Below the pieces are notes generated by a model. The model saw only the letters and a list, made by a program, of their open reading frames with translations, was not told where the DNA came from and ran no database searches. Positions 6,011 to 39,695 of a stretch of DNA of 45,938 nucleotides are shown piece after piece (position 1 is the first letter of the stretch; the number at the start of each line of letters is the position of its first letter). The stretch is from a virus. The position numbers and the translations under genes were made by a program. The DNA lies in IMG/VR virus record IMGVR_UViG_3300009177_000057, positions 1 through 45,938 of that record. One strand, written 5' to 3'.

Positions 6011-6017
6011 CTAAATA
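6011..6017 (+). promoter_or_regulatory. T4-type late promoter CTAAATA
   Basis: CTAAATA directly abuts the ATG at 6017 and lies five bases before the ATG at 6023. It opens the late block. It matches the T4 late consensus TATAAATA in its last six bases. Confidence 0.5.
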
Positions 6018-6331
6018 TGTCAATGGACGAGCAGGAAGATCAGCTTTCTCAGATGAGAGGCTTCATCGAGATCACGGAGTCGATGCTTTGCGCATATGCG
6101 CGGGTGACGAGGCCGGATGCCATGATGATTACTGAAAGCGTCGTTCAAGAAAGCGTGGAGACCATCGAACATCCAGTCCTGTCGGAAGCTCGTGATCTCG
6201 TTTTCAAACTGCGATCCTTCATGGAGGACTCGTCAGGGGAATATGCGTTGGGTGTCGAAAACGGGATGCAGCGCGCCGCAGACATGATCGAGAATCTCAT
6301 CAGGCGGCATGAGAAAGGTGACCAGTCTTGA
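6017..6331 (+). CDS. Hypothetical late protein, 104 aa
   Basis: Two starts are possible, ATG 6017 or ATG 6023. The late promoter ends on the A of the first, so the second (MDEQEDQL, five bases after the promoter) fits the geometry of other late genes here better. The protein is acidic and helical, with MRGFIEITESML near its start resembling the N-terminal tags of other late proteins. Its C-terminus (ENGMQRAADMIENLIRRHEK) is a likely amphipathic helix. First gene of the late block. No known family. Confidence 0.6.
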   Translation: MSMDEQEDQLSQMRGFIEITESMLCAYARVTRPDAMMITESVVQESVETIEHPVLSEARDLVFKLRSFMEDSSGEYALGVENGMQRAADMIENLIRRHEKGDQS

Positions 6332-9260: not shown

Positions 9261-9953
9261 GTGATTCGTATGTTCATGCTTTTGCTCCTTTCATCGTTTC
9301 TGCACATGATGGTCACGCCGGTTTCTCTGCCGGGTATGGCCGTTGCCGATAGCGTTCGTGAGATCGAATGCCCGCTCACCGATGAGGTGGCGTCGCAAGG
9401 CTCTGCGACCGTGATTAGCAAGAACATGGTCCTCACCGACTATCACGTCATCTACAAGAGCACGGGAGCGTGCCTGTTCGACGGCTCTCCGACTGTCCGG
9501 GTTCTCTATGCCAACGCCGATGAGGACATCGCCGTTCTCGCCGTCGATACGGGTGCCCTCAAACCGATTCCGATTTCGTGCACCGGAATGGTCCCCGGCA
9601 ACGACTATCTCGCGCTCGGCTATCCGGGCTATTTGAACCACGGCTACGACGCGCGACTCGTGGTGACCGGCAAATTTCCCAACCTGAAATTCAGCACGGA
9701 ACTCGTGGAGAAACCCCCGGTGCTCGGCGCTCAATTGGTGGTCGCCACGGCGGTTCACATTGATACTCCGGCGACCGAAGATTACCCGTTCGTGTCCCAC
9801 GATCTCACGGTGATGCTGCGAAACGTCTATGAGGGAATGTCGGGTGGGCCGATTCTGAATGACCAAGATCAGATTACCGGCCTCGTCACTTCGCTGTATG
9901 GAAAAGAAAACTCGGCCAACCGCGATTTGAAAGGCACCGGACTCTGCCGCTGA
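9261..9953 (+). CDS. Exported trypsin-like serine protease, 230 aa
   Basis: The S1-fold catalytic triad is visible: H62 in TDYHVIY, D89 in DEDIAVL and S194 in GMSGGPI. A hydrophobic N-terminus ends in a signal peptidase I site, AVA before DSVREIEC (about residue 29), so the enzyme should reach the periplasm. Paired cysteines (37, 71, 107 and near the C-terminus) fit an oxidising compartment. The GTG at 9261 or the ATG at 9270 may start it; the ATG gives a more typical signal peptide. It stands alone between a terminator and a late promoter, with no clear promoter of its own. A role in lysis, envelope remodelling or superinfection exclusion is speculation. Confidence 0.8.
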   Translation: MIRMFMLLLLSSFLHMMVTPVSLPGMAVADSVREIECPLTDEVASQGSATVISKNMVLTDYHVIYKSTGACLFDGSPTVRVLYANADEDIAVLAVDTGALKPIPISCTGMVPGNDYLALGYPGYLNHGYDARLVVTGKFPNLKFSTELVEKPPVLGAQLVVATAVHIDTPATEDYPFVSHDLTVMLRNVYEGMSGGPILNDQDQITGLVTSLYGKENSANRDLKGTGLCR

Positions 9954-10011: not shown

Positions 10012-10164
10012 ATGACGGTGAACCAAATCTTCGAAAATGCGGGTGCACGTAAGACGGTGTGGACCAAGCGCGGCGACCAAGTGTCGAAGCGTGAGGTTTC
10101 TACTGTCTCGTCCGTGAAGCCGCGCGTGAAGATTGAAGCCATCAAGGAAGGTCACAAGCAATGA
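10012..10164 (+). CDS. Small basic late protein, 50 aa
   Basis: The frame begins MTVNQIFENAGARKTV and ends EAIKEGHKQ. It is basic after the first ten residues. NQIFEN has the I-x-E pattern of prohead-protease sites, as in the tagged late proteins. It follows a late promoter and overlaps the next gene (ATGA), which favours a real gene despite its size. It may be a small internal or core protein. No family recognised. Confidence 0.55.
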   Translation: MTVNQIFENAGARKTVWTKRGDQVSKREVSTVSSVKPRVKIEAIKEGHKQ

Positions 10165-11729
10165 GCCTCTACGAAGACGCCATGACCGCGATGGATTTCG
10201 ATTTCACCAGCACGCTCACGAAGCTGCTGGGCATCAGCGAAGACGAAGTCGCTGATGTGATTGAGAAACTCGACGTGGACGATCTCACCGATCTGGTGGA
10301 TGCGTGTGTGAAGGGTAATGCCGAAGCCGCGCGCGAGATCATCGGTTCTGAAACCGAAGAACTCGAACCCCAAGAGAAGAAGGGCGAGGACGACAAGTCC
10401 GACGAGCCCGAGATTGGCGATCTCATTGCCCCGAAGGACAAACTTCGGGCGCAACGTAAGAAAAAGAAGGCTCGCATCCTTCGCAAATCAGAAACAGAAC
10501 TTGGCGAGGACACTGCCCCGGACGTTGTCTTCAACATTGGCGACCCTGTGGCCGTCGATGGTGAAGAAGCGACCGTCAAGGTGCCTTCTGGCCCCGGTGA
10601 CACCGTCGGTGTCCTCATCAATGGAGAACTTAAAATGGTCGATAAGAAAAGCGTTCACCCGCTGAACGAAGGTGTCCTCGGTATGACGGCAATGCCCGGT
10701 CTGAAGCCGTCGGGCGACCTGCAACGCATCCGCGAACTGGCTGGCCTGCCCGCCGACAGCATGGATGATCCTATGGCTCAGCCGCCGATGACGCCGCCCA
10801 CGGAAGTGGACGCGCCTGAAGTCGGTCTGCCCGGCGTTGACGCTGGCGTTGACGCTGGCGACGAAGCTGGTCTGCCGCCGGAAGGCATGGACGACATTCA
10901 TCACAGCACCGACATGGCTGATGTTCCTTCTGAGGAACCGGCTATGGAAATGCCGCCGGTTGGCGACATGGGCGGTGACGAAATGGGCGGCGACATGGGC
11001 GCACCGGCTCCCGAGATGGGCGGCATTCCGTCGCCGGGTTCGGCTCTTGAAGACGCGGCGGCTCTCGACCAAGCCATCACGGACATCGAGAACCTGATCC
11101 CGAACGTCAAGATCAGCGAATACAAGACGCTGGTCGCTCGCCTCGAAGCTCTGGTCTCCATGGCGAAGTCGGCCGGTAAGGCTGCCCTGACCGAAGCTGG
11201 CGACCCTGCTCTGAAGGCAAAGATCGCTGCATTCGCTGCGGGCCGCAAGCCCAAGACCGAAGACAAGATCGCATCGAAGCCGGAATTCTCGAAGCCTGCA
11301 CCGGCCGCCAAGGTCGATGGCCCGAAGCCCGCTGCTGCTCCGAAGGTTGCTGAGCCGACCGTTGGCGACAACGTCCGCAAGACCTTGATGGATTATGTCA
11401 AGGAAGCTGACGAAAGCGGCCACGAGACCATTGGTCAGAACCGCAACGACGCCATCAAGAACCTGCAAACTCGCATGGGTCCGGGCACCACGCCGCAAGC
11501 TGCGGCGCAGGCTATGGACGCGATGATGAAGGACGGCGGCGTCAAGCAGATGGGTTCCGCGTTCACGATGGCTCCCATGGACGACAACACGTTCAAGACC
11601 AACATGGCGGCCATGAAGAAGCCCACACAGAGCCCGACGCAAAGCACGTCGGCGCCCGGTTCGAACACCACGAACCCCAGCGCCAACGTGCAGGGAGCCT
11701 CCAACCCGGCATATCAGGGCGGTAACTAA
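10161..11729 (+). CDS. Large acidic/low-complexity late protein, 522 aa
   Basis: The ATG overlaps the previous TGA. The helical N-terminus (about 1-60) is followed by a charged Glu/Lys region (QEKKGEDDKSDEPEIG), then DLQRIRELAGLPADSMDDP, an ELAG-type motif I associate with T4-type phage late proteins. Next comes a Met/Gly/Asp-rich stretch (GDMGGDEMGGDMGAPAPEMGG), a helical segment (ALEDAAALDQAITDIE) and an Ala/Pro/Lys-rich tail. A related Asp/Gly/Met-rich stretch occurs in the protein at 15131. Composition suggests a scaffold- or core-like assembly protein, but I cannot assign it to a T4 gene. Confidence 0.7.
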   Translation: MSLYEDAMTAMDFDFTSTLTKLLGISEDEVADVIEKLDVDDLTDLVDACVKGNAEAAREIIGSETEELEPQEKKGEDDKSDEPEIGDLIAPKDKLRAQRKKKKARILRKSETELGEDTAPDVVFNIGDPVAVDGEEATVKVPSGPGDTVGVLINGELKMVDKKSVHPLNEGVLGMTAMPGLKPSGDLQRIRELAGLPADSMDDPMAQPPMTPPTEVDAPEVGLPGVDAGVDAGDEAGLPPEGMDDIHHSTDMADVPSEEPAMEMPPVGDMGGDEMGGDMGAPAPEMGGIPSPGSALEDAAALDQAITDIENLIPNVKISEYKTLVARLEALVSMAKSAGKAALTEAGDPALKAKIAAFAAGRKPKTEDKIASKPEFSKPAPAAKVDGPKPAAAPKVAEPTVGDNVRKTLMDYVKEADESGHETIGQNRNDAIKNLQTRMGPGTTPQAAAQAMDAMMKDGGVKQMGSAFTMAPMDDNTFKTNMAAMKKPTQSPTQSTSAPGSNTTNPSANVQGASNPAYQGGN

Positions 11730-13095: not shown

Positions 13096-13102
13096 CTAAA
13101 TA
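13096..13102 (+). promoter_or_regulatory. Late promoter CTAAATA, four bases from the start codon
   Basis: CTAAATA, then CATG, then ATG at 13107. This is the same four-base spacing as at 32224, 35773 and 36927. Confidence 0.6.
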
Positions 13103-13106
13103 CATG

Positions 13107-13538
13107 ATGCGCGATCTGATCCAAATCATCGAAGGGCTCAACGAAGCCGACCTTGAACGCCGTGGCCGCTACGATGAAATGGTGACACGCCTGAAGCAAG
13201 CGGCCGATCACGGTCAATTCGGCAACTACATGGTTCCGAAAGTTGCGGGTGACGGCACCGTCAGTCAGCTTTCGAAGGCCCTCGAAGACGCCGGGATGCA
13301 CGTTTGGGTCGTCCGCACTTTCCATTTGCGCGAAGATTTGGACGTGACCAAATTCCACGGCCCCGTGGTCGTTCTGCTGGATGTTGACGGCGCCCTGTCC
13401 TACGAAGCCGCCCGCGCCATCAAGATCGCAATCAGCGATATCGGGGCGAACAAGCTCCCGGTCACAATGCTGATGGTTGGTCAACCCAGCGATATTACCG
13501 ATCCGGGCATCAACTCCCGTTTTCAGACCATCGGCTAA
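13107..13538 (+). CDS. Late protein with N-terminal targeting-like tag, 143 aa
   Basis: Starts are possible at ATG 13104 or 13107; the second keeps the four-base promoter spacing shared with other genes. The N-terminus MRDLIQIIEGLNEAD contains I-I-E-G, a match to the T4 prohead protease preference (L/I-x-E before a small residue), so the first nine residues may be a removable capsid-targeting tag. The rest is an alpha/beta domain with a receiver-like strand VVVLLDVDGALSYE and a second strand MLMVGQPSDI. I cannot name the fold. It may be an internal head protein; this is inference. Confidence 0.65.
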   Translation: MRDLIQIIEGLNEADLERRGRYDEMVTRLKQAADHGQFGNYMVPKVAGDGTVSQLSKALEDAGMHVWVVRTFHLREDLDVTKFHGPVVVLLDVDGALSYEAARAIKIAISDIGANKLPVTMLMVGQPSDITDPGINSRFQTIG

Positions 13539-27877: not shown

Positions 27878-29650
27878 ATGGCTGGACTCAAGACTCGATA
27901 CAAGGTGGCGGCCATCGCCATCCTCGCGGGCGGGGCGCTCTTCGGCGTCAAGACCCTCATCAGCACCGGCGTCATCAAGCCGCCGCCGGGCCTCGCGGCT
28001 TTCGCGCCGACCAAGACCAACAACACCCTGACGGGCAACGTGACCGCCGCCGTCGCGAGCTATGAACTGGCCGCGCAACCGGCCAGCGGCATGACCGGCT
28101 GTCCCCGGATGCTCGCCATCGCGTGGAACGGCGCGGCGCCGATCACGCTGGCCAACGGCGGCGTGACCACGTCCGACGACTCCCTCGTGAAGAAGTATGC
28201 CGGTGGCTGCTTGAAGATCGAGCGTCAGGACGACTACGGCGTCCAGAAGGACGAACTGGTGAAGTTCGCCCAAGGCGTGAAGAACGGCGAAGCCAACCCG
28301 CAAGGCGCGGCCTTCACGATCATGATGGGCGACGCCTACGCCGCCTACGCTCAGTCGCTCCAAGAGCGCATGGGCGCCCTCGGCCAGCAGGTCGTCGTGG
28401 TCGGCATCACCGGCTTCTCCTACGGGGAAGACAAGGCGATGGGCAAGCCGCTGAACGGCAACCCCCAGTCCGCCAAGGGCAGCCTGATCGCTGGCGTCCC
28501 CTACGACGGCGACTGGAACACCATGGTGAAGTGGGCGGGTGACAACAACATCCGCATCAACGCTCGCCAAGACACCTACGACGTGGACGCCATCAACACC
28601 GTGGACACCCAGTCGTTCACGGACGCCGATGACAAGTATGCCAACGGCTACCACGAAAAGCGCAAGGTCATGAAGGACGGCAAGCTGACCGGCGAAGTCC
28701 GTGACGTGACCGTGGACGGCGTGCTGACGTGGTTCCCCGGCGACCGCTTCGTGGTCACCAAGAAGCCCGGCCTGACGACTTGGGCGTCCACCCACGACTA
28801 CAACCAGCAGATGCCTGCGGTCATCATCACGACGAAGTCGTGGGCCGACTCGCACCGCGCCTACATCGTCGGCCTTCTGCGGGCCTTCGACCGCGCCGCT
28901 TTCGACATTCGCTCGGGCGACGGCGTGACCAAGCTGGGCAAGACCCAAGCGGCCGTCTACGGCACCGCCGGTGGCGAAGAAGCGACTGCTGACTTCTGGA
29001 CCAAGGCGTTCACCGGCTACGACTACACCGACACGCAGGGCAACACCGTTCGTCTGGGCGGCACCCGCGCCGTCACGCTGGCGGAAGTCCGCGACTACCT
29101 CGGCCTGACGCCGGGCGCGCTGAACGTCTACAAGGGCGTCTACACGACCTTCGGCGACTACGCGCACGCCTTCTACCCGAAGGACGTGCCGTCCTATCCG
29201 AAGTTCGAGGATGTCGTTGACACCTCGTTCGTCACGGCGGCGCTGGCCGGTGTGCAGACTTCGGTGGCCTCGACCTTCACGGCCTCCAAGTCGATCACCC
29301 AGCAGGTCTCGGCGAAGGACTACAGCATCGAGTTCGCCACGGGCTCGAACAAGCTGACCCCGGCCGGGTATCGCACCCTGAACCAGATCGCCAACTCGGT
29401 CGGCATGACCGGGCTGCGGGTTCGGATCACGGGCTACACCGACAACACCGGCAACGACGCGGCCAACCTGACCCTGTCGCGGGCTCGCGCCCAAGCGGTG
29501 GCGGATGCGCTCTTCGCGCTGGCTCCCAAGACGTTCCCCAACGAACGGATGGAAGTCCAAGGTCTGGGTTCGTCGAACCCGGTGGCCGACAACACCACCG
29601 AAGCCGGTCGTTCGAAGAACCGCCGGGTGGAGATCGCGCAGGGCAACTAA
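27878..29650 (+). CDS. ABC-importer substrate-binding protein fused to a C-terminal OmpA domain, 590 aa
   Basis: An N-terminal hydrophobic helix (about 8-26, KVAAIAILAGGALFGVKTLI) should anchor or export the protein; there is no lipobox. About residues 65-460 form a periplasmic binding-protein-like domain of the NitT/TauT kind (segments such as AVIITTKSWADSHRAYIVGL, AYAAYAQSLQERMGALGQQV). The last 110 residues are an OmpA peptidoglycan-binding domain: YSIEFATGSNKLTPAGY, GYTDNTGNDAANLTLSRARA, then GRSKNRRVEI. The protein could thus be tied to the cell wall while it feeds the permease encoded downstream. The substrate cannot be read from sequence. Confidence 0.85.
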   Translation: MAGLKTRYKVAAIAILAGGALFGVKTLISTGVIKPPPGLAAFAPTKTNNTLTGNVTAAVASYELAAQPASGMTGCPRMLAIAWNGAAPITLANGGVTTSDDSLVKKYAGGCLKIERQDDYGVQKDELVKFAQGVKNGEANPQGAAFTIMMGDAYAAYAQSLQERMGALGQQVVVVGITGFSYGEDKAMGKPLNGNPQSAKGSLIAGVPYDGDWNTMVKWAGDNNIRINARQDTYDVDAINTVDTQSFTDADDKYANGYHEKRKVMKDGKLTGEVRDVTVDGVLTWFPGDRFVVTKKPGLTTWASTHDYNQQMPAVIITTKSWADSHRAYIVGLLRAFDRAAFDIRSGDGVTKLGKTQAAVYGTAGGEEATADFWTKAFTGYDYTDTQGNTVRLGGTRAVTLAEVRDYLGLTPGALNVYKGVYTTFGDYAHAFYPKDVPSYPKFEDVVDTSFVTAALAGVQTSVASTFTASKSITQQVSAKDYSIEFATGSNKLTPAGYRTLNQIANSVGMTGLRVRITGYTDNTGNDAANLTLSRARAQAVADALFALAPKTFPNERMEVQGLGSSNPVADNTTEAGRSKNRRVEIAQGN

Positions 29651-29665
29651 GCCCACGCACGAGAC

Positions 29666-29689
29666 GAGGGGCGGGTTCGCCCGCCCCTC
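29666..29689 (+). other. Very stable UUCG-loop hairpin between binding protein and permease
   Basis: GAGGGGCGGG-TTCG-CCCGCCCCTC, a perfect 10-bp stem followed by CT-rich sequence (CTCTTTCTCTTTT). It is a likely partial terminator that would make more binding protein than permease. Confidence 0.75.
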
Positions 29690-29716
29690 GATCCTCTTTC
29701 TCTTTTCGGAGTTCCC

Positions 29717-30517
29717 ATGTCTAAGTTCCTGTCTGCCTTCATCCCCAACGAGAAGACTGACCGACAGGTCACCCTTACGCTCGTCGCCGGATGGCTGATC
29801 CTCACTGCTGCGACTTGGGTGATCCTCACCAATGGCGCGCAGGTTCGGGACCAGATCGTTCCCCTTCTCCCCAGCCCCAAATCCGTCGGTGCCGCGTTCG
29901 GCAAGGAAATGGGTGGTGGCGCTATCTACCAACTCATCACCAGCCTGACCGTCAGCCTCGAAGCGATCTTCCTCGCGACGGTTATTGGCCTCGGCATCGT
30001 CTATGCCGCCACTGCTGCGGCGTTTCGTCCCCCGGCCATCTTGATTGGCTCGTTTCGCTTCCTGTCGCTGGCTGGTATCACGGTCATCTTCATGATGGTC
30101 TTGGGCGGCCATGCCTTGAAGGTCGGCATTCTGGCCTTCTCGATGATGACCTTCTTCGTCGGGGACATGCTTCAAGTGGTTGACGACATTCCCGAAGCAC
30201 GGTTCGACCATGCTCGCACGCTCGGCCTCTCCAAGTGGGGCGTCCTGCGTGAGGTGGTCATCCGGGGCACTCTCTCGGAAGCCTTCGAAAGCGTCCGCAA
30301 GAACGCCGCCATCGCGTGGATGATGCTGACCAGCGTCGAGGCGATTTCCCGCTCGGAAGGTGGCATCGGGCTCCTGCTCGTGACCCTCCAACGGAGCGGC
30401 CAGTATTCGTCGATCTTCGCGATCCAACTGCTGATCTTCATGGTTGGCATGGCGCAAGACCGGGCTCTGAAATACGGCAAGGCGCTGACTTGCCCCTACA
30501 CCGTGAAGGGCCGCTAA
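29717..30517 (+). CDS. ABC importer permease, NitT/TauT type, 266 aa
   Basis: About six hydrophobic helices are visible (for example VTLTLVAGWLILTAATWVIL, LEAIFLATVIGLGIVYAATA, FLSLAGITVIFMMVLGGHA). The cytoplasmic coupling loop has the EAA-type signature in EARFDHARTLGLSKWGVLRE, which docks on the ATPase encoded next. Length is normal for a one-domain permease working as a homodimer. It would sit in the host inner membrane. A helix-rich segment at the end (SIFAIQLLIFMVGMAQDRAL) matches the last helix of the family. Confidence 0.88.
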   Translation: MSKFLSAFIPNEKTDRQVTLTLVAGWLILTAATWVILTNGAQVRDQIVPLLPSPKSVGAAFGKEMGGGAIYQLITSLTVSLEAIFLATVIGLGIVYAATAAAFRPPAILIGSFRFLSLAGITVIFMMVLGGHALKVGILAFSMMTFFVGDMLQVVDDIPEARFDHARTLGLSKWGVLREVVIRGTLSEAFESVRKNAAIAWMMLTSVEAISRSEGGIGLLLVTLQRSGQYSSIFAIQLLIFMVGMAQDRALKYGKALTCPYTVKGR

Positions 30518-30518
30518 C

Positions 30519-31484
30519 ATGGGCGAGAAATTCATTCCTTTCGCGCCGGGCTTCGCCGCTCCTGCGGCAGCACCGGCCCCGGCGGCTCCTGCTGTGGTTC
30601 CTGCGGCTCCCGCCGCTGAAGCAGCAGTCACCGTGTTCCCGACCCCGAAGAAGGCGCCGATTCCCGGTGACTACAGCTACTCGCTGAACGAGGTTCTTCT
30701 CGAAGTCAGCAAGCTGAATGTCCACTACGATTCGCCGATCCTTCGGGACGTGGACTTTACGATCCGCAACATCATCCGGCCCGGCTACACGCAAGGTCAG
30801 GTTGACGCCCTGCTCGCTCCCTCTGGGATGGGCAAGACCCAACTGTTTCGTTGCATCTCCGGCCTGAAGACCCCAAACTCCGGTTCGGTGATGATTGGCG
30901 AAGGCAAGGAAGCCACTCGCGCCGGTAAGGTCGGTGTCGTGGCTCAGGACTATCCCCTGTTCGCCCACCTGACCGTCTTCGACAACGTGCTGATGGCTGC
31001 GAAGCTGAAGCTCGATGCGAAGGATGCGGCCGACAAGACCATCTCGATGCTCGAACGCTTCGAGTTGGACCAACGGCGCGACATGTATCCGCATCAGCTT
31101 TCGGGCGGCCAGCGGCAGCGTGTGGCGATCATCCAGCAGATGGTGGCCTGCGGCCATCTCCTGCTGATGGACGAACCCTTCTCGGGCTTGGACATCCTGA
31201 TGAAGGAAAAAGTTCAGGACATGATTACGTCGCTCGCGGCGGAAGATGAAATGAACTCGATCATTCTGACGACGCACGACATTCAGAGCGCCATCGCGGT
31301 GGCGGACACCATCCTCGTGATGGGTCGCGAACGCGACGAGAAGGGTCAGCCCATTCCGGGCGCCCGGATTGTCAAGACGTTCGATCTGATGGAGCGCGGC
31401 CTCGCATGGAGACCGGATGTCACCAAGCTCCCGCAGTTCCACGAACTGGAACGCGAGATCACGGCGATGTTCCACGATCTCTGA
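30519..31484 (+). CDS. ABC importer ATP-binding protein, 321 aa
   Basis: It has all nucleotide-binding motifs: Walker A APSGMGKT (100-107), Q-loop Q143, signature LSGGQ (194-198), Walker B LLLMDEP (214-220) and H-loop H253. It drives transport by ATP hydrolysis as a dimer under the permease. An unusual Ala/Pro-rich extension (about 12-48) precedes the normal domain, similar in composition to the linker in the first gene of the operon. The start ATG follows the permease stop by one base. A terminator follows. Confidence 0.93.
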   Translation: MGEKFIPFAPGFAAPAAAPAPAAPAVVPAAPAAEAAVTVFPTPKKAPIPGDYSYSLNEVLLEVSKLNVHYDSPILRDVDFTIRNIIRPGYTQGQVDALLAPSGMGKTQLFRCISGLKTPNSGSVMIGEGKEATRAGKVGVVAQDYPLFAHLTVFDNVLMAAKLKLDAKDAADKTISMLERFELDQRRDMYPHQLSGGQRQRVAIIQQMVACGHLLLMDEPFSGLDILMKEKVQDMITSLAAEDEMNSIILTTHDIQSAIAVADTILVMGRERDEKGQPIPGARIVKTFDLMERGLAWRPDVTKLPQFHELEREITAMFHDL

Positions 31485-31541: not shown

Positions 31542-32219
31542 TCATGCGTATTGTTCGGGTTGATCGACAACGAACCATTCGGCCTGCGGGCCGCTGTAGT
31601 GGCTCTCGTCTCGTAGGCGCATTCGCCATTTCAGCACGTCATCCAACGCGACGCCTTGGATCGGCCGGTCGATCTCCAAGACCGTGCCGGTGTGTTCCGC
31701 AAAATCTTTTGCAGTTTTGTAGTTGGCGGACCACGAGTGGAACCCGCGTTTGTTGCTGCGCTCCCGACTGAAGGGTTGCTGACCGCGATATAGGTGCTTG
31801 CGCACCGGCGGGCTGATCCGCTTCAGGATCGACAGGAACCGCGCCGCCAGTTCCGGGTGCTCTTCCCCGTGGTCGGCGTTCCACGTCCAACCGCTGATGA
31901 AGCTGATAAGATCATCGTCGTCGGCAATCAGCGCACATGCCGTCTCGTAACTAATTGGTCTGTTGGAAGCCCTAAGAGCGGGCAGGGCAGCCTTGACCTT
32001 GTCGATGCCCCGTTCTTGCGCTCGCCGCAGAACACCTCTCACTCGTTCGCTTTCGAGCCGCTCGATGGCTCCGTCAACGCCCTTTCCCAGCTTCACATAG
32101 AAGGCAAGGTCTTCCGGCGATAGCGGATAGCGAGCCAGACGATCTGCGTCCTTGGGTTCGATACCGAACGCCCTGAAAGCATCGTAGTCCACGGCTTCGA
32201 AAATTTCGGTCCAACGCAT
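31542..32219 (-). CDS. Putative ADP-ribosyltransferase with targeting tag, 225 aa
   Basis: The C-terminal half has the R-S-E layout of ADP-ribosyltransferases: R145 in HLYRGQQ, S162/S164 in FHSWSAN, and Q212-A-E214 in SGPQAEW, a Q-x-E catalytic pair. These enzymes move ADP-ribose from NAD to a target. I start it at the ATG at 32219 because CTAAATA ends four bases upstream, as in the two related genes; longer in-frame starts exist. The resulting N-terminus MRWTEIFEAVD holds I-F-E-A, an ideal T4-type prohead-protease site. It may therefore be packed in the head and injected like T4 Alt. The target is unknown. Confidence 0.75.
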   Translation of the reverse strand: MRWTEIFEAVDYDAFRAFGIEPKDADRLARYPLSPEDLAFYVKLGKGVDGAIERLESERVRGVLRRAQERGIDKVKAALPALRASNRPISYETACALIADDDDLISFISGWTWNADHGEEHPELAARFLSILKRISPPVRKHLYRGQQPFSRERSNKRGFHSWSANYKTAKDFAEHTGTVLEIDRPIQGVALDDVLKWRMRLRDESHYSGPQAEWFVVDQPEQYA

Positions 32220-32223
32220 CTCG

Positions 32224-32230
32224 TATTTAG
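32224..32230 (-). promoter_or_regulatory. Late promoter CTAAATA (leftward)
   Basis: Read leftward CTAAATA, then CGAG, then ATG: four-base spacing to the start of the transferase gene. A conserved late element embedded in what would be upstream coding sequence supports this start. Confidence 0.65.
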
Positions 32231-35772: not shown

Positions 35773-35779
35773 CTAAATA
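35773..35779 (+). promoter_or_regulatory. Late promoter CTAAATA, four bases from the start codon
   Basis: CTAAATA-GTGG-ATG. The predicted transcript would start at or near the ATG. Confidence 0.65.
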
Positions 35780-35783
35780 GTGG

Positions 35784-36923
35784 ATGCGCGAATTCATCAA
35801 TCTGCTGGAACGAGCCGCGACCGATGCCACGGTCACACTGTATCGCGGCGACAATTCCAAGATTGACCGATTTCAGATCGCGAAAACCGATGAAGGGGCT
35901 CTTCTGGGCGTCGGTATCTATCTGACCGACAGCCCGGATGTGGCCAAGGACTACACCGTCAAAGGTTCGACCGAGATTGCCTTCCGGCCGGACAATGAGG
36001 CTCTCACACCGCGCGATCTCACGGCGGCGTTTCTACGCAAGCTGATAAACACCGACGCGAAGTTTGAAGATCGGCTCACCGATCTGAAAAATATGTGGCA
36101 GCAAAAATATTACAGGCTGTCCGGCGAGATCGACTGGTCGGGCGATCACGAGGCAGCCAGAGCCGAACGAGATCGCATTCAGGATGAGATTCAGAACGGC
36201 TTCCAAGTCGAGCGGAGCAAGATGATCCGCGACGCCATGGCGCGTGCGAAATCCAAGTTCCAACGGATGCGTCCCGATCTTCGGATCACCAAGCTGACCA
36301 CCGGAGAATACGTTTTCACGAACAAGGTTCGGCAGGCGGCCGTAGCTCGCTTCGAAGTTCCGACTTCCTATCTGGCGAAATGCCTTCACGCCGAACGGCC
36401 GCTGCCAGACAATGTCATCCCGTTCATCAAGGATGCGTTCACCCGCGCCCACTTCTCGAACGACCCGGACGGACAATGGGACCTTCGCGCCTACAACCCG
36501 AAGGGCAACAACGGCGACGAGGATACCGGTTTGACGTTTGACCAGTTCATCCATGGCTACCGCGAGCGCGGCGCCCGCTATGCGTGGACCGACCGTTGGG
36601 AAGGCGGCAAGGGCGAGAACCCGTCGCTCGACTTCATTTTCAACGGCACGCACAGCGGCTACCATGCCTTCCAGCATAGCCGTGAGAAGCAAATGAATCT
36701 CATGGATGATTTGAAGAAGCTGGGCTATGTCGGCTACGCTTACGATGGCGGTGTGAGACTGGCTGGCACGGGAGCGCGTGGGGGTGGCGGTATTCGTCAC
36801 AACGCCTACGTTCTCTGGGACGAAGACGCGGTCCATTCCTTCCGAGTAGACGACGAAGATGTCACCGACGACGAAGTTGGCGCCCTAGAAAAGGGCATTC
36901 GCGCCGCTAAAGTCCTGCCTTAA
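35784..36923 (+). CDS. Putative ADP-ribosyltransferase-like late protein with tag, 379 aa
   Basis: The first residues MREFINLLERA look like a capsid-targeting tag with L-L-E as a potential cleavage site. An ADP-ribosyltransferase-like layout follows: VTLYRGDN (R21), GVGIYLTDSPDVAKDY (about 42-57, a pattern common in phage polyvalent and MuF-linked transferase domains) and, at the end, HNAYVLWDEDAV, the usual closing strand. The catalytic Glu cannot be assigned with certainty. A long helical insert (about 75-160) separates the parts. With the gene at 36938 and the one at 31542 this makes three such genes with the same promoter geometry. The fold call is moderate in strength. Confidence 0.65.
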   Translation: MREFINLLERAATDATVTLYRGDNSKIDRFQIAKTDEGALLGVGIYLTDSPDVAKDYTVKGSTEIAFRPDNEALTPRDLTAAFLRKLINTDAKFEDRLTDLKNMWQQKYYRLSGEIDWSGDHEAARAERDRIQDEIQNGFQVERSKMIRDAMARAKSKFQRMRPDLRITKLTTGEYVFTNKVRQAAVARFEVPTSYLAKCLHAERPLPDNVIPFIKDAFTRAHFSNDPDGQWDLRAYNPKGNNGDEDTGLTFDQFIHGYRERGARYAWTDRWEGGKGENPSLDFIFNGTHSGYHAFQHSREKQMNLMDDLKKLGYVGYAYDGGVRLAGTGARGGGGIRHNAYVLWDEDAVHSFRVDDEDVTDDEVGALEKGIRAAKVLP

Positions 36924-36926
36924 ACA

Positions 36927-36933
36927 CTAAATA
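36927..36933 (+). promoter_or_regulatory. Late promoter CTAAATA, four bases from the start codon
   Basis: CTAAATA-GTTC-ATG. Same geometry as at 35773. Confidence 0.65.
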
Positions 36934-36937
36934 GTTC

Positions 36938-37342
36938 ATGCTCTCGATGCGTGAACTCATGTTGATGGTCGAAATGACCGAGCGGCCGAGAGAAGGGCCG
37001 CCCGTGCCCGATATGCTGTATCACGGCACCAGCCTCAGCGCGTGGGAAATGATCCAGTCGGACAACACCATGATCGCCTCCGATCACCGCGACGAAGAGT
37101 CGATTTCTTTCACCACGGATTGGCACACAGCACAGCGCTTCGCCCTGCAAGGCGCGCGGCGTGATGGCGATGACAGTGGCGTGGTGATCGAGTTCAACGG
37201 GGACGATCTGGCCCGGAAGTTCAACGTGAAGCCGTTTTCGGACACCGGTCTGATCCACGCCGAATCAGAATGGCGGATCGACGTGTCGGAAATCACTCAG
37301 GTGAACCGCTATATCAGCGGCGTTGAAAAGGTCGGCTGGTAG
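36938..37342 (+). CDS. Putative small ADP-ribosyltransferase-like late protein, 134 aa
   Basis: After a tag-like start (MLSMRELMLMVEMTE) the protein shows YHGTS (H29), SISFTTDWHTAQRFA (S57) and AESEWRI with E109-x-E111. That is an H/R-S-E-x-E order matching compact ADP-ribosyltransferase folds of phage and toxin proteins. A strand GVVIEFNGDDL separates the last two. It is the shortest of three similar genes and contains little besides the putative catalytic domain. It overlaps the leftward P-loop gene tail-to-tail by 29 bases. Activity is inferred from motifs only. Confidence 0.65.
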   Translation: MLSMRELMLMVEMTERPREGPPVPDMLYHGTSLSAWEMIQSDNTMIASDHRDEESISFTTDWHTAQRFALQGARRDGDDSGVVIEFNGDDLARKFNVKPFSDTGLIHAESEWRIDVSEITQVNRYISGVEKVGW

Positions 37343-38841: not shown

Positions 38842-39130
38842 ATTCGTAAACTATCTTGACCATGCCTCTAGCACAAAAATCGTCAACAATCCAATCGTGG
38901 TATGCCATTTTGAATAGGGTGGCATCGGCAAGGCTTTTGAAGCAGATGAAGAAGAGTGTCTTCTCCGAACTGAACCCGTAAATATCGGGAGCCCCGTAGC
39001 CTTTCTTCGGTTTCGCCTTGATGCGAAACTTCGGATATTCGAGCAACCAGTCAACAACCTCATCGACCCAGACAGAAAACTTGTCTGCGTCTTCTGGACC
39101 ATCGACGTAGAATTTATACCAGCGCGTCAA
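38828..39130 (-). CDS. Small protein with DATLFK motif, 100 aa
   Basis: I start it at TTG 39130, because the longer reading lies inside the upstream gene and this start overlaps that gene's last codons. The product runs MTRWYKFYVDGPEDADKFSV and contains FKSLADATLFKMAYHDWIVD, the recurring motif with an extra tail (about 20 residues) behind it. Its neighbour upstream carries the same motif, so the two are probably duplicates. The start remains uncertain. Confidence 0.6.
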   Translation of the reverse strand: MTRWYKFYVDGPEDADKFSVWVDEVVDWLLEYPKFRIKAKPKKGYGAPDIYGFSSEKTLFFICFKSLADATLFKMAYHDWIVDDFCARGMVKIVYEYDFD

Positions 39131-39695
39131 GTGCCAGCCGTGTGTTTTCGAGAAGTTGCCCCATGATCGCAGCTTTCTGATCGGCCTCTCTTTGGGCTGC
39201 CTGTTTAGCCCGACGGGCCGCCCGGCGCGCTGCGGCATGTTTGGCTGCGCGCTTGGTAGCAGCCTTGTAACGCACACGCATCGAATAGATTGCAGCCGTC
39301 GGCCCAGTCATCGGCTGCACGCCGCAGATGTCGCTTGCGATAATCTTCGGCATGGCCCGGCGAACCAGCGAGATGAGGACCGGATCGTAGGTCCCCACGC
39401 CGACACCGTAGACGAATTTCTGGATCACATGATCCGAGAAGAACATCTTGAACAGCGTGGCATCTCGGGTTGAGCGGAGCTTCACTCGGATGACGGCGAA
39501 GGTCACCCGGTCACCGAGCGACTCCCACGTTTGGGCGCCGGTCTTCCCAGAACCCAACAGATAGGTTTTGATCGTCTTCGTCTTGTTCGTCGCCACCCAC
39601 GCGAGCACTTCGTCATGAAGCTCGCGCAGTTGATCGGTCGCGGAAACGTCTTTCCGGCGCTCGGGGCGCAGGTCGAAGGTATGCCAATTGCGCAT
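39114..39695 (-). CDS. Protein with DATLFK motif and Ala/Arg/Lys-rich tail, 193 aa
   Basis: Starts MRNWHTFDLRPERRKDVSAT. The motif RVKLRSTRDATLFKMFFSDH (about 90-109) matches the C-terminal motif of six other small proteins here, but in this protein it is internal and followed by a PMTGPTAAIYSMR loop and a strongly basic Ala/Arg/Lys coiled tail (KRAAKHAAARRAARRAKQAA). The tail suggests DNA or RNA binding. Part of the leftward operon. Confidence 0.7.
   Translation of the reverse strand: MRNWHTFDLRPERRKDVSATDQLRELHDEVLAWVATNKTKTIKTYLLGSGKTGAQTWESLGDRVTFAVIRVKLRSTRDATLFKMFFSDHVIQKFVYGVGVGTYDPVLISLVRRAMPKIIASDICGVQPMTGPTAAIYSMRVRYKAATKRAAKHAAARRAARRAKQAAQREADQKAAIMGQLLENTRLALDALV

What the first reader, a model, noticed from the sequence alone, without database searches (positions are those of the whole stretch)
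31542..32219. ADP-ribosyltransferase with R-S-QxE motif and an ideal prohead-protease site after eight residues
R145, S162/S164 and Q212-x-E214 give the full R-S-E order. Starting at the ATG four bases after CTAAATA produces MRWTEIFE followed by Ala, which matches the T4 protease preference I/L-x-E before A/G. This would be an Alt-like enzyme injected with the DNA, at a locus unlike T4 alt.
Basis: partly seen in the sequence, partly recalled or inferred. Interest (0 to 1): 0.82.

Follow-up and report, generated by a model that had tools for sequence, protein, structure and literature searches.

The report
Head-targeted ADP-ribosyltransferase of giant phages
A giant bacterial virus appears to put a short address tag on an enzyme that chemically modifies host molecules, so that the enzyme rides inside the virus head and enters the next bacterium with the DNA; a similar tag sits on dozens of other genes in related viruses, which would let their injected proteins be read from sequence.

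Summary
Observation confirmed: on the minus strand, 32219..31542, CTAAATA-CGAG-ATG opens a 225-aa protein MRWTEIFE|A with R145, S162/S164 and Q212-A-E214. Alone, such a start is a 1% event (21 of 2213 control ORFs). The wider data carry it. The window belongs to a giant T4-like phage lineage in which many late-promoter elements (C/ATAAATA) sit exactly 4-5 nt before a start codon, suggesting leaderless mRNAs. About half of such genes (53 of 116) match a loose tag pattern; clear cases, MR[YWF]xEI(x)xE, resemble the T4 capsid-targeting sequence MKTYQEFIAE. Bodies are mostly unrelated; three ART-like genes in this window carry the tag. Neither orthologue of this gene has the promoter, but all three keep an I-x-E site. 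The core model is weak; yet Foldseek ranks 1-15 are ADP-ribosyltransferases, C3-like first, as are all 38 entries listed on realignment. Best reading: a C3-like QxE transferase, packaged in the head, trimmed by the prohead protease and injected. It would work like T4 Alt but is not an Alt-family member. Packaging, cleavage and activity are untested.

The parts
31542..32219 (-). putative ADP-ribosyltransferase gene, 225 aa, stop included
32224..32230 (-). CTAAATA late-promoter-like element, 4 nt before the ATG (apparently leaderless)
   Evidence: CTAAATA is the putative late promoter of phage Aeh1, PMC1524935 passages
32196..32219 (-). codons 1-8, MRWTEIFE, capsid-targeting-like propeptide; predicted cleavage before Ala9 (codon starts at 32195)
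31824..32186 (-). N-terminal helical domain, residues 12-132, block mean pLDDT 58-83
31545..31967 (-). C-terminal part, residues 85-225, modelled alone as ART core
31785..31787 (-). codon of R145 (HLYRGQ, first catalytic motif)
31728..31736 (-). codons of S162-W163-S164 (second motif)
31578..31586 (-). codons of Q212-A213-E214 (third motif, QxE)
35784..36923 (+). second ART-like gene, MREFINLLE|R..LYRGD, 379 aa; CTAAATA at 35773-35779, 4 nt before ATG
   Evidence: (ART-PolyVal E 3e-4, below its cut-off)
36938..37342 (+). third ART-like gene, MLSMRELMLMVE..LYHGT..SFTTD..AESEW, 134 aa; CTAAATA at 36927-36933, 4 nt before ATG
   Evidence: (KptA/Tpt1 family E 6.6e-4, below its cut-off)
13107..13538 (+). 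tagged gene of unknown function, MRDLIQIIE|G, 143 aa; CTAAATA at 13096-13102, 4 nt before this ATG (another ATG one codon earlier)
6023..6331 (+). leaderless-type gene without a clear tag at its start, 102 aa; CTAAATA at 6011-6017

Best explanation
The gene encodes a late-made, head-packaged ADP-ribosyltransferase. Shown by sequence: a CTAAATA element stands 4 nt before the ATG, which would put the transcript start at or next to it; the first eight residues match a tag shared by many late genes of this giant-phage lineage with mostly unrelated bodies, and resembling the T4 internal-protein capsid-targeting sequence; the body has a helical domain and a C-terminal core with R, S-x-S and Q-x-E in the order of R-S-E transferases. 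Inferred: a phage late sigma factor transcribes it as a leaderless mRNA; the tag docks the protein in the prohead core; the prohead protease cuts after Glu8; the mature enzyme (from Ala9) is enclosed with the DNA, injected at the next infection, and ADP-ribosylates host molecules before phage genes are expressed. The Q-x-E motif suggests, by a rule recalled for C3-type enzymes, a target residue other than arginine. It is one of three transferase-like tagged genes in this window.
For: Motifs and start confirmed. All catalytic motifs are invariant in three orthologues (76 and 53% identity to ours); each keeps an I-x-E site at the aligned point (IFE-A, INE-A, ISE-D) although length and neighbouring residues differ. 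Core model (pTM 0.64, five sequences): Foldseek ranks 1-15 of 31 matches among 350,542 PDB chains are ARTs, ranks 1-9 all C3 exoenzyme; 21 of the 31 are ARTs; of 102 chains realigned by VIA-align 57 reach Z 2, and all 38 entries listed are ARTs (one an ART-ARH pair), best Z 3.8, rmsd 4.2 over 112 residues. Leaderless architecture: CTAAATA is the commonest 7-mer 4-5 nt before an ORF ATG in window and G2, ATAAATA in G3, whereas Shine-Dalgarno words lead in Phosso and Atu_ph07, where 1 of 271 C/ATAAATA elements has that spacing. Tag: regex R1 matches 4 of 5, 24 of 48 and 25 of 63 leaderless ORFs of window, G2 and G3 against 22 of 340 SD-led ORFs of the same three. IMG/VR scans: 97 stretches with the promoter-tag pattern at spacing 4-5 against 15 at spacing 8-9; of 86 distinct open products 67 carry a further Glu 1-4 residues after the selected EI (500 shuffles: mean 26.8, maximum 37), and the next residue is A/S/G in 31 of 67 against 21% background. 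T4 IPII and IPIII start MKTYQEFIAEA; ten residues suffice for targeting in T4 (PMC9026906 passages). A short ART-like motif occurs in 10 of 53 tagged leaderless ORFs and 24 of 1196 other ORFs of window, G2 and G3. In cultured Atu_ph07, 11 consecutive genes (CDS53-63) start M[RK]W..[QD]L.E or MRLFQLLE, inside the CDS31-76 cluster (46 genes) of which 29 products were found in virions (PMC6102473, section 29 read). A gp21-type protease and a full gp23-type capsid protein are found in G3, Phosso and Atu_ph07.
Against: No direct evidence of virion presence, cleavage or catalysis. No ART family matches P0001 by sequence. The leaderless promoter is seen in the window copy (and the near-identical 21-kb record) only: no TAAATA within 60 nt upstream in the G2 or G3 orthologue. 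The three-row alignment is small, and its G3 row was cut where the tblastn match begins, so part of the I-x-E agreement there is by construction; in G3 that site is internal. In the window alone the R1 count (4 of 5) is reached by shuffles (maximum 4). The full-length model has a poorly resolved core (block pLDDT mostly 30-58) and its fold search gave one unrelated row; the core-only model is still of low confidence (pLDDT 62.5), best Foldseek E 0.28, 10 of 31 matches not ARTs, and the tool warns that Z under 8 may mean only a common arrangement. The core alignment included the 36938 pair, which I chose for its ART-like motifs, so the test is not blind. No Peptidase_S77 was found in window, G1 or G2, which are or may be incomplete. 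The second group reads S-W-S, not S-T-S. P1' is not A/S/G in 36 of 67. The Atu_ph07 numbers do not force any tagged protein to be in the virion; the per-protein table was not available.
Confidence: 0.7

Rival explanations
1. A transferase made late and acting in the cell that makes it, not packaged; the N-terminal octapeptide has another role, such as helping leaderless mRNAs to be translated.
For: All evidence for the tag is sequence. Leaderless genes with and without tag use the same promoter element, and leaderless translation depends on the 5' end of the message (recalled).
Against: About half of the leaderless genes lack the tag (24 of 48 in G2, 38 of 63 in G3), Atu_ph07 has the tag on SD-led genes, and both orthologues keep an I-x-E site without the promoter, so tag and leaderless start separate. 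Glu with A/S/G after it is enriched, as for a protease site.
Confidence: 0.16
2. Packaged cargo, but not an enzyme: a degenerate or repurposed ART-like fold acting as a binding protein.
For: No family match; S-W-S in place of S-T-S; low-confidence fold.
Against: R145, S162, S164, Q212 and E214 with flanking RGQ, GFHSWSAN and GPQAEWFVVD are invariant down to 53% identity, more than expected of a dead site.
Confidence: 0.09
3. Chance motif assembly: neither ART nor packaged.
For: An [IL]-x-E|[AG] start alone occurs in 21 of 2213 control ORFs; short ART motifs also occur in control ORFs (24 of 1196).
Against: Conservation in three orthologues, the fold matches and the tag statistics.
Confidence: 0.05

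Closest known systems
T4 Alt (packaged ADP-ribosyltransferase, PF03496)
   Same: transferase with R-S-E order, head-packaged, short propeptide removed by the prohead protease, injected (PMC9026906 and PMC9503650 passages)
   Different: Alt is 682 aa, E-x-E, and has TATAAATA with a Shine-Dalgarno leader; ours is 225 aa, Q-x-E, apparently leaderless, another locus, no Pfam match and a weak profile match
T4 internal proteins IPI-IPIII and their capsid targeting sequence
   Same: short N-terminal tag: basic residue, aromatic, E, hydrophobic pair, x, E; in T4 shared by different bodies and ten residues suffice
   Different: typical tags here are one or two residues shorter, with a looser P1', and sit on dozens of genes instead of a few
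C3-like exoenzymes (structures in the PDB)
   Same: Q-x-E motif (structure titles name Q212 and E214 of C3bot1), best fold matches
   Different: 8-13% identity, weak scores; those act on eukaryotic GTPases (recalled); ours has an extra helical N-domain and sits in a phage
ART-PolyVal (PF18760) transferases of phage polyvalent proteins
   Same: several tagged genes of the same genomes match it; injected ARTs were predicted for phages (PMC9503650 passages)
   Different: P0001 itself does not match it; here stand-alone proteins with a short N-terminal tag instead of parts of large head proteins
Atu_ph07 tandem array CDS53-63
   Same: eight-residue starts such as MRWEQLTE close to MRWTEIFE, in a cluster rich in virion proteins
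   Different: no C/ATAAATA at 4-5 nt in that genome; no match to P0001 in it (which has no positive control among those two records)
Phage Aeh1 late promoter
   Same: CTAAATA beginning at -12 (PMC1524935 passages)
   Different: the passages seen give the element, not a 4-5 nt spacing to ATG
SPN3US-type giant phage ejection proteins
   Same: prohead protease trims injected head proteins (PMC5694885 passages)
   Different: several of those propeptides are over 100 residues, not 8-14

Membership tests
R-S-E class ADP-ribosyltransferase superfamily | Arg in first core strand (LYRG-like) | tested here: met
   HLYRG with R145, invariant in 3 of 3 orthologues; strand 55-62 of the core model
R-S-E class ADP-ribosyltransferase superfamily | S-T-S motif or variant | tested here: inconclusive
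   S162-W-S164, invariant, but Trp in the middle
R-S-E class ADP-ribosyltransferase superfamily | [Q/E]-x-E with catalytic Glu | tested here: met
   Q212-A-E214, invariant
R-S-E class ADP-ribosyltransferase superfamily | ART fold | tested here: inconclusive
   core model pLDDT 62.5; Foldseek ranks 1-15 and all 38 listed VIA entries are ARTs, but best E 0.28 and best Z 3.8; full-length model uninformative
R-S-E class ADP-ribosyltransferase superfamily | NAD-dependent transfer | not testable with these tools
   needs an assay
T4 Alt family (PF03496) | significant match to the family model | tested here: not met
   no PF03496 for P0001 with the limit at E 10 (HMMER's filters drop most matches above about 0.1); T4 Alt as control 5.8e-36; profile comparison with six Alt domains E 0.018, probability 2.5%
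T4 Alt family (PF03496) | E-x-E arginine-type signature | tested here: not met
   Q-A-E against E574-M-E576 of Alt
T4-type capsid-targeted internal proteins | short N-terminal tag ending in h-x-E, common to several unrelated proteins | tested here: met
T4-type capsid-targeted internal proteins | gp21-type prohead protease in the phage | tested here: inconclusive
   Peptidase_S77 in G3, Phosso, Atu_ph07; none in window, G1, G2, which are or may be incomplete
T4-type capsid-targeted internal proteins | presence in head and N-terminal cleavage | not testable with these tools
   needs virion proteomics
leaderless late transcripts | late-promoter element at fixed 4-5 nt from the start codon | tested here: met
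   met for this gene and many others of window, G2, G3, not for its G2 and G3 orthologues; controls: Phosso and Atu_ph07, spacing 8-9 in IMG/VR
leaderless late transcripts | mapped 5' end at the ATG | not testable with these tools
   needs RNA 5'-end sequencing; with the Aeh1 numbering (-12 to -6) the A of an ATG 4 nt downstream would fall at -1

The most novel reading that the evidence does not exclude
A lineage of giant T4-like phages has turned the T4 capsid-targeting sequence into a general export tag: a module of late-promoter element, 4-5 nt, start codon and 8-14 residue cleavable peptide sits on dozens of mostly unrelated genes per genome, transferases prominent among them, is driven without a ribosome-binding leader, and marks the proteins that the phage injects. 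The set of injected effectors could then be read directly from sequence, as with secretion signals.
Probability: 0.6. Interest if true: 0.82.

Novelty: new variant of a known kind. Interest (0 to 1): 0.72.

Why it matters
Which proteins a giant phage delivers with its DNA is largely open; a 2026 review names Tad1 as the only anti-defence protein described in jumbo phages so far and expects more among small uncharacterised genes (PMC13282480 passages). If the tag is a real head address, the cargo can be predicted gene by gene and tested in cultured phages such as Atu_ph07. The strict 4-5 nt promoter-to-start spacing, nearly absent from Phosso and Atu_ph07 (1 of 271 elements), would make a case of widespread leaderless late expression that 5'-end mapping can check; leaderless phage messages as such are not new (PMC5312081 passage). 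In my paper searches no listed title or abstract start, and none of the passages I opened, reports short capsid-targeting tags or leaderless late genes in T4-like giant phages; only open-licence papers are held, and most listed papers were not opened.

Tried and rejected
Scans of P0001 in Pfam, PHROGs and PDB sequences gave only weak, unrelated hits. Relatives in named phages, plasmids (core only) and 84,980 species genomes: none convincing; best tblastn E with the core 0.4 and 5. The family has three distinct members plus a near-identical record, all in IMG/VR. AlphaFold on the full protein left the core poorly resolved and its fold search was uninformative. Profile comparison of the 36938 family with Alt gave nothing (E 0.21); with P0001's core E 0.0088 but probability 4.6%. 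At first I took window 10161-11729 for the major capsid protein and dropped that: no PHROG or Pfam match, and Phosso's capsid gene lies elsewhere than its match to that protein. I considered that tag and leaderless start are one feature and rejected it (Atu_ph07 has tagged SD-led genes; half of the leaderless genes have no tag). The loose regex R1 also catches chance starts (for example G3 57574, 470622, 129422, 48143), which I left in the counts; the 66 proteins clustered include these, some added by hand without an R1 match, and one typed in. The batch for one search was chosen for ART-like motifs, so '7 of 26 distinct tagged or tag-like proteins scanned have an ART-PolyVal or KptA match at E <= 1e-3, 3 of them over the curated cut-off' is not an unbiased rate.

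Full report
What is there. The coordinates hold a minus-strand gene, ATG at 32219, 225 codons and a stop at 31542. CTAAATA at 32230-32224 is followed by CGAG and the ATG. The frame is open upstream and contains an earlier ATG, so the start is an inference; in the 76% orthologue of the 415-kb record G2 a GTG stands at the same point shortly after the stop of the open frame before it.

Source. The window is a virus record of 45,938 bases. It carries primase, DnaB helicase, both ribonucleotide reductase subunits, an ABC-transporter ATPase and arginyl-tRNA synthetase. Relatives of the protein exist in three IMG/VR records: a 21-kb record with an identical copy, G2 (415,409 bp, 76%) and G3 (516,805 bp, 51-53%). 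No convincing relative was found in the phage, plasmid or species-genome collections. Cultured giant phages Phosso (469 kb) and Atu_ph07 (490 kb) served as comparison; Phosso has a distant match to another window protein and primase and helicase genes nearby.

Late promoter and start spacing. CTAAATA occurs 9 times in the window (0.37 expected) and 67 times in G2 (8.5 expected); in G3 neither CTAAATA (51, 63 expected) nor ATAAATA (115, 104 expected) is in overall excess, and only the spacing stands out. The first ATG of an ORF of at least 60 aa lies 4-5 nt after the element in 4 of 9 (window, CTAAATA), 28 of 67 and 13 of 57 (G2, CTAAATA and ATAAATA), 13 of 51 and 45 of 115 (G3); other distances below 20 nt number 2, 3, 4, 0 and 7, and 20-59 nt 2, 20, 22, 18 and 29. 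An unguided count of 7-mers 4-5 nt before ORF ATGs puts CTAAATA first in window and G2 and ATAAATA first in G3; in Phosso and Atu_ph07 the first words are AGGAGAT and AAGGAGA, and 1 of 271 C/ATAAATA elements has the 4-5 nt spacing, 125 lying at 20-59 nt. The pattern CTAAATA-N4-ATG gives 4, 14, 3 and 0 matches in window, G2, G3 and Phosso, and none in the backward control. CTAAATA has been described as the putative late promoter of phage Aeh1 at -12 (PMC1524935, passages). The plain reading is leaderless late mRNAs; no 5' ends were available. T4 alt, in contrast, has TATAAATA and a Shine-Dalgarno leader. Neither the G2 nor the G3 orthologue of our gene has TAAATA within 60 nt upstream, so for this gene the promoter is not a conserved feature.

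The tag. Regex R1 (M, up to four residues, R, then hydrophobic, then Glu) matches 4 of 5, 24 of 48 and 25 of 63 leaderless ORFs in window, G2 and G3, against 0 of 17, 9 of 127 and 13 of 196 SD-led ORFs there, and 9 of 258 and 18 of 227 in Phosso and Atu_ph07. Against shuffled N-termini (300 shuffles) the leaderless excess is clear in G2 (24, mean 4.8, maximum 12) and G3 (25, mean 5.3, maximum 13) but not in the window alone (4, maximum 4). A tighter T4-like pattern is found in 17 of 113 leaderless ORFs of the three (expected 0.0 in each), in 1 of 340 SD-led ORFs there, in 0 of 258 of Phosso and in 11 of 227 of Atu_ph07. T4 IPII and IPIII start MKTYQEFIAEA; starts such as MRYHEIISE, MRYFEILNE or G2's (V)RWFEIINE differ mainly by one residue less. 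In T4 ten residues suffice, positions 4 and 7 matter for targeting and 8 and 10 for cleavage (PMC9026906, passages). Bodies are mostly unrelated: 66 tagged or tag-like proteins fall into 48 clusters. Among seven G3 genes with an xWYR tag the first 39 nt are 70% identical pairwise and codons 21-40 30%, as expected of a tag joined to different bodies.

Collection-wide control. Scanning IMG/VR for promoter, 4-5 nt and ATGCGNTDBNNNGARATH gave 32 + 65 = 97 stretches, on contigs of 6 to 608 kb, 15 of them over 200 kb; the same with 8-9 nt gave 7 + 8 = 15 stretches, one on a contig over 200 kb. The 97 hold 88 distinct products, 86 open for 60 aa or running off the locus; 67 of these 86 have another Glu within four residues after EI (500 shuffles: mean 26.8, maximum 37), followed by A, S or G in 31 of 67 against 21% background. 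The 15 control stretches hold 7 distinct products, 4 open, 1 with such a Glu. The P1' residue is therefore favoured, not fixed. Capsid proteins of G3, Atu_ph07 and Phosso show candidate maturation sites VME-S, LME-N and LME-T (by eye), so a loose P1' is plausible in this group.

Link to virions. In Atu_ph07 eleven consecutive genes, CDS53-63, begin MKWNDLNE, MRWEQLNE, MRWEQLTE and so on (numbering by counting the record's genes, which fits the gene numbers in the paper). They lie in CDS31-76, of which 29 products were identified in virions by mass spectrometry (PMC6102473, section 29 read). The table naming them is in a supplement that could not be opened, and the numbers do not force any tagged protein to be among the 29. 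Packaging of ARTs by phages with contractile tails has been argued from gene context (PMC9503650, passages), so the idea is not new; the tag is a more direct handle.

The enzyme. The three orthologues keep all catalytic residues and, in the first eighteen positions, only I6, E8 and D13: P3 and P1 of the predicted site and one more. The G3 row of that alignment was cut where the tblastn match begins, so this agreement is partly by construction; in G3 the protein is 371 aa, starts MSNWYREIVNLLE-G and has an extra stretch without Pfam match before an internal IISE-D at the aligned position. AlphaFold on the full protein gave helices for residues 12-132 and a poorly resolved core (pLDDT 61). The core alone, aligned with the 36938 pair, gave pTM 0.64, pLDDT 62.5. 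Its Foldseek list is weak (best E 0.28), but ranks 1-15 of 31 are ARTs, C3 exoenzymes in front, 21 of 31 in all; VIA-align realigned 102 of Foldseek's chains and lists 38 entries, all ARTs, Z 2.4-3.8. I read this as support for the fold, not proof. Q-x-E sets it apart from Alt; that Q-x-E points to non-arginine targets is recalled.

Other transferases. Window 35784 (ART-PolyVal E 3e-4) and 36938 (KptA family E 6.6e-4) are below the curated cut-offs, but both keep tag and leaderless start in G2. In G2 and G3 five more tagged or tag-like genes match ART-PolyVal at E 7e-5 to 2e-18. A short ART-like motif is found in 10 of 53 tagged leaderless ORFs and 24 of 1196 other ORFs. So this phage group seems to carry several injected transferases.

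Verdict. The larger result is the tag plus leaderless late start across giant phages, which is inferred from sequence and awaits proteomics and 5'-end mapping.

Noticed in passing
window 39114-39695 (-); G2 252116-252265 (-) and 396539-397372 (+): Mosaic proteins holding pieces of the gp23-type major capsid protein: the window one has Gp23 profile positions 2-62 (E 4e-19) inside an otherwise unrelated 193-aa protein, with a counterpart in G2. The piece covers GVQPMTGP, which I recall as near the T4 stretch that triggers the host Lit protease; a decoy is conceivable.
   Followed up: partly
window, G2 and G3 genome-wide: Promoter element exactly 4-5 nt before the start codon in many late genes, nearly absent from Phosso and Atu_ph07: apparently leaderless late expression.
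   Followed up: yes
L004:5551-6666 (G3 259799-260914): G3 orthologue has an extra stretch of roughly 140 aa between its tag and the ART part, with a second I-x-E site at the junction; no Pfam match. By eye it looks like an acetyltransferase piece, untested.
   Followed up: partly
MF403008 39484-50592 (-): Tandem array of eleven genes with similar tagged starts in Agrobacterium phage Atu_ph07.
   Followed up: partly
window 27878-31484 (+): OmpA-family protein, an ORF at 29717-30517 that by eye looks like a permease, and an ABC-transporter ATPase in a phage; the ATPase gene is the convergent neighbour of the ART gene.
   Followed up: no
window 9261-9953 (+): Trypsin-like peptidase (Trypsin_2, E 2.8e-11) just downstream of an ORF starting MINTSINLLLEG (8729).
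   Followed up: no
L034:14-700 (G3 100014): Tagged protein with a weak acetyltransferase match (E 0.003, below its cut-off), so cargo may include other modifying enzymes.
   Followed up: no
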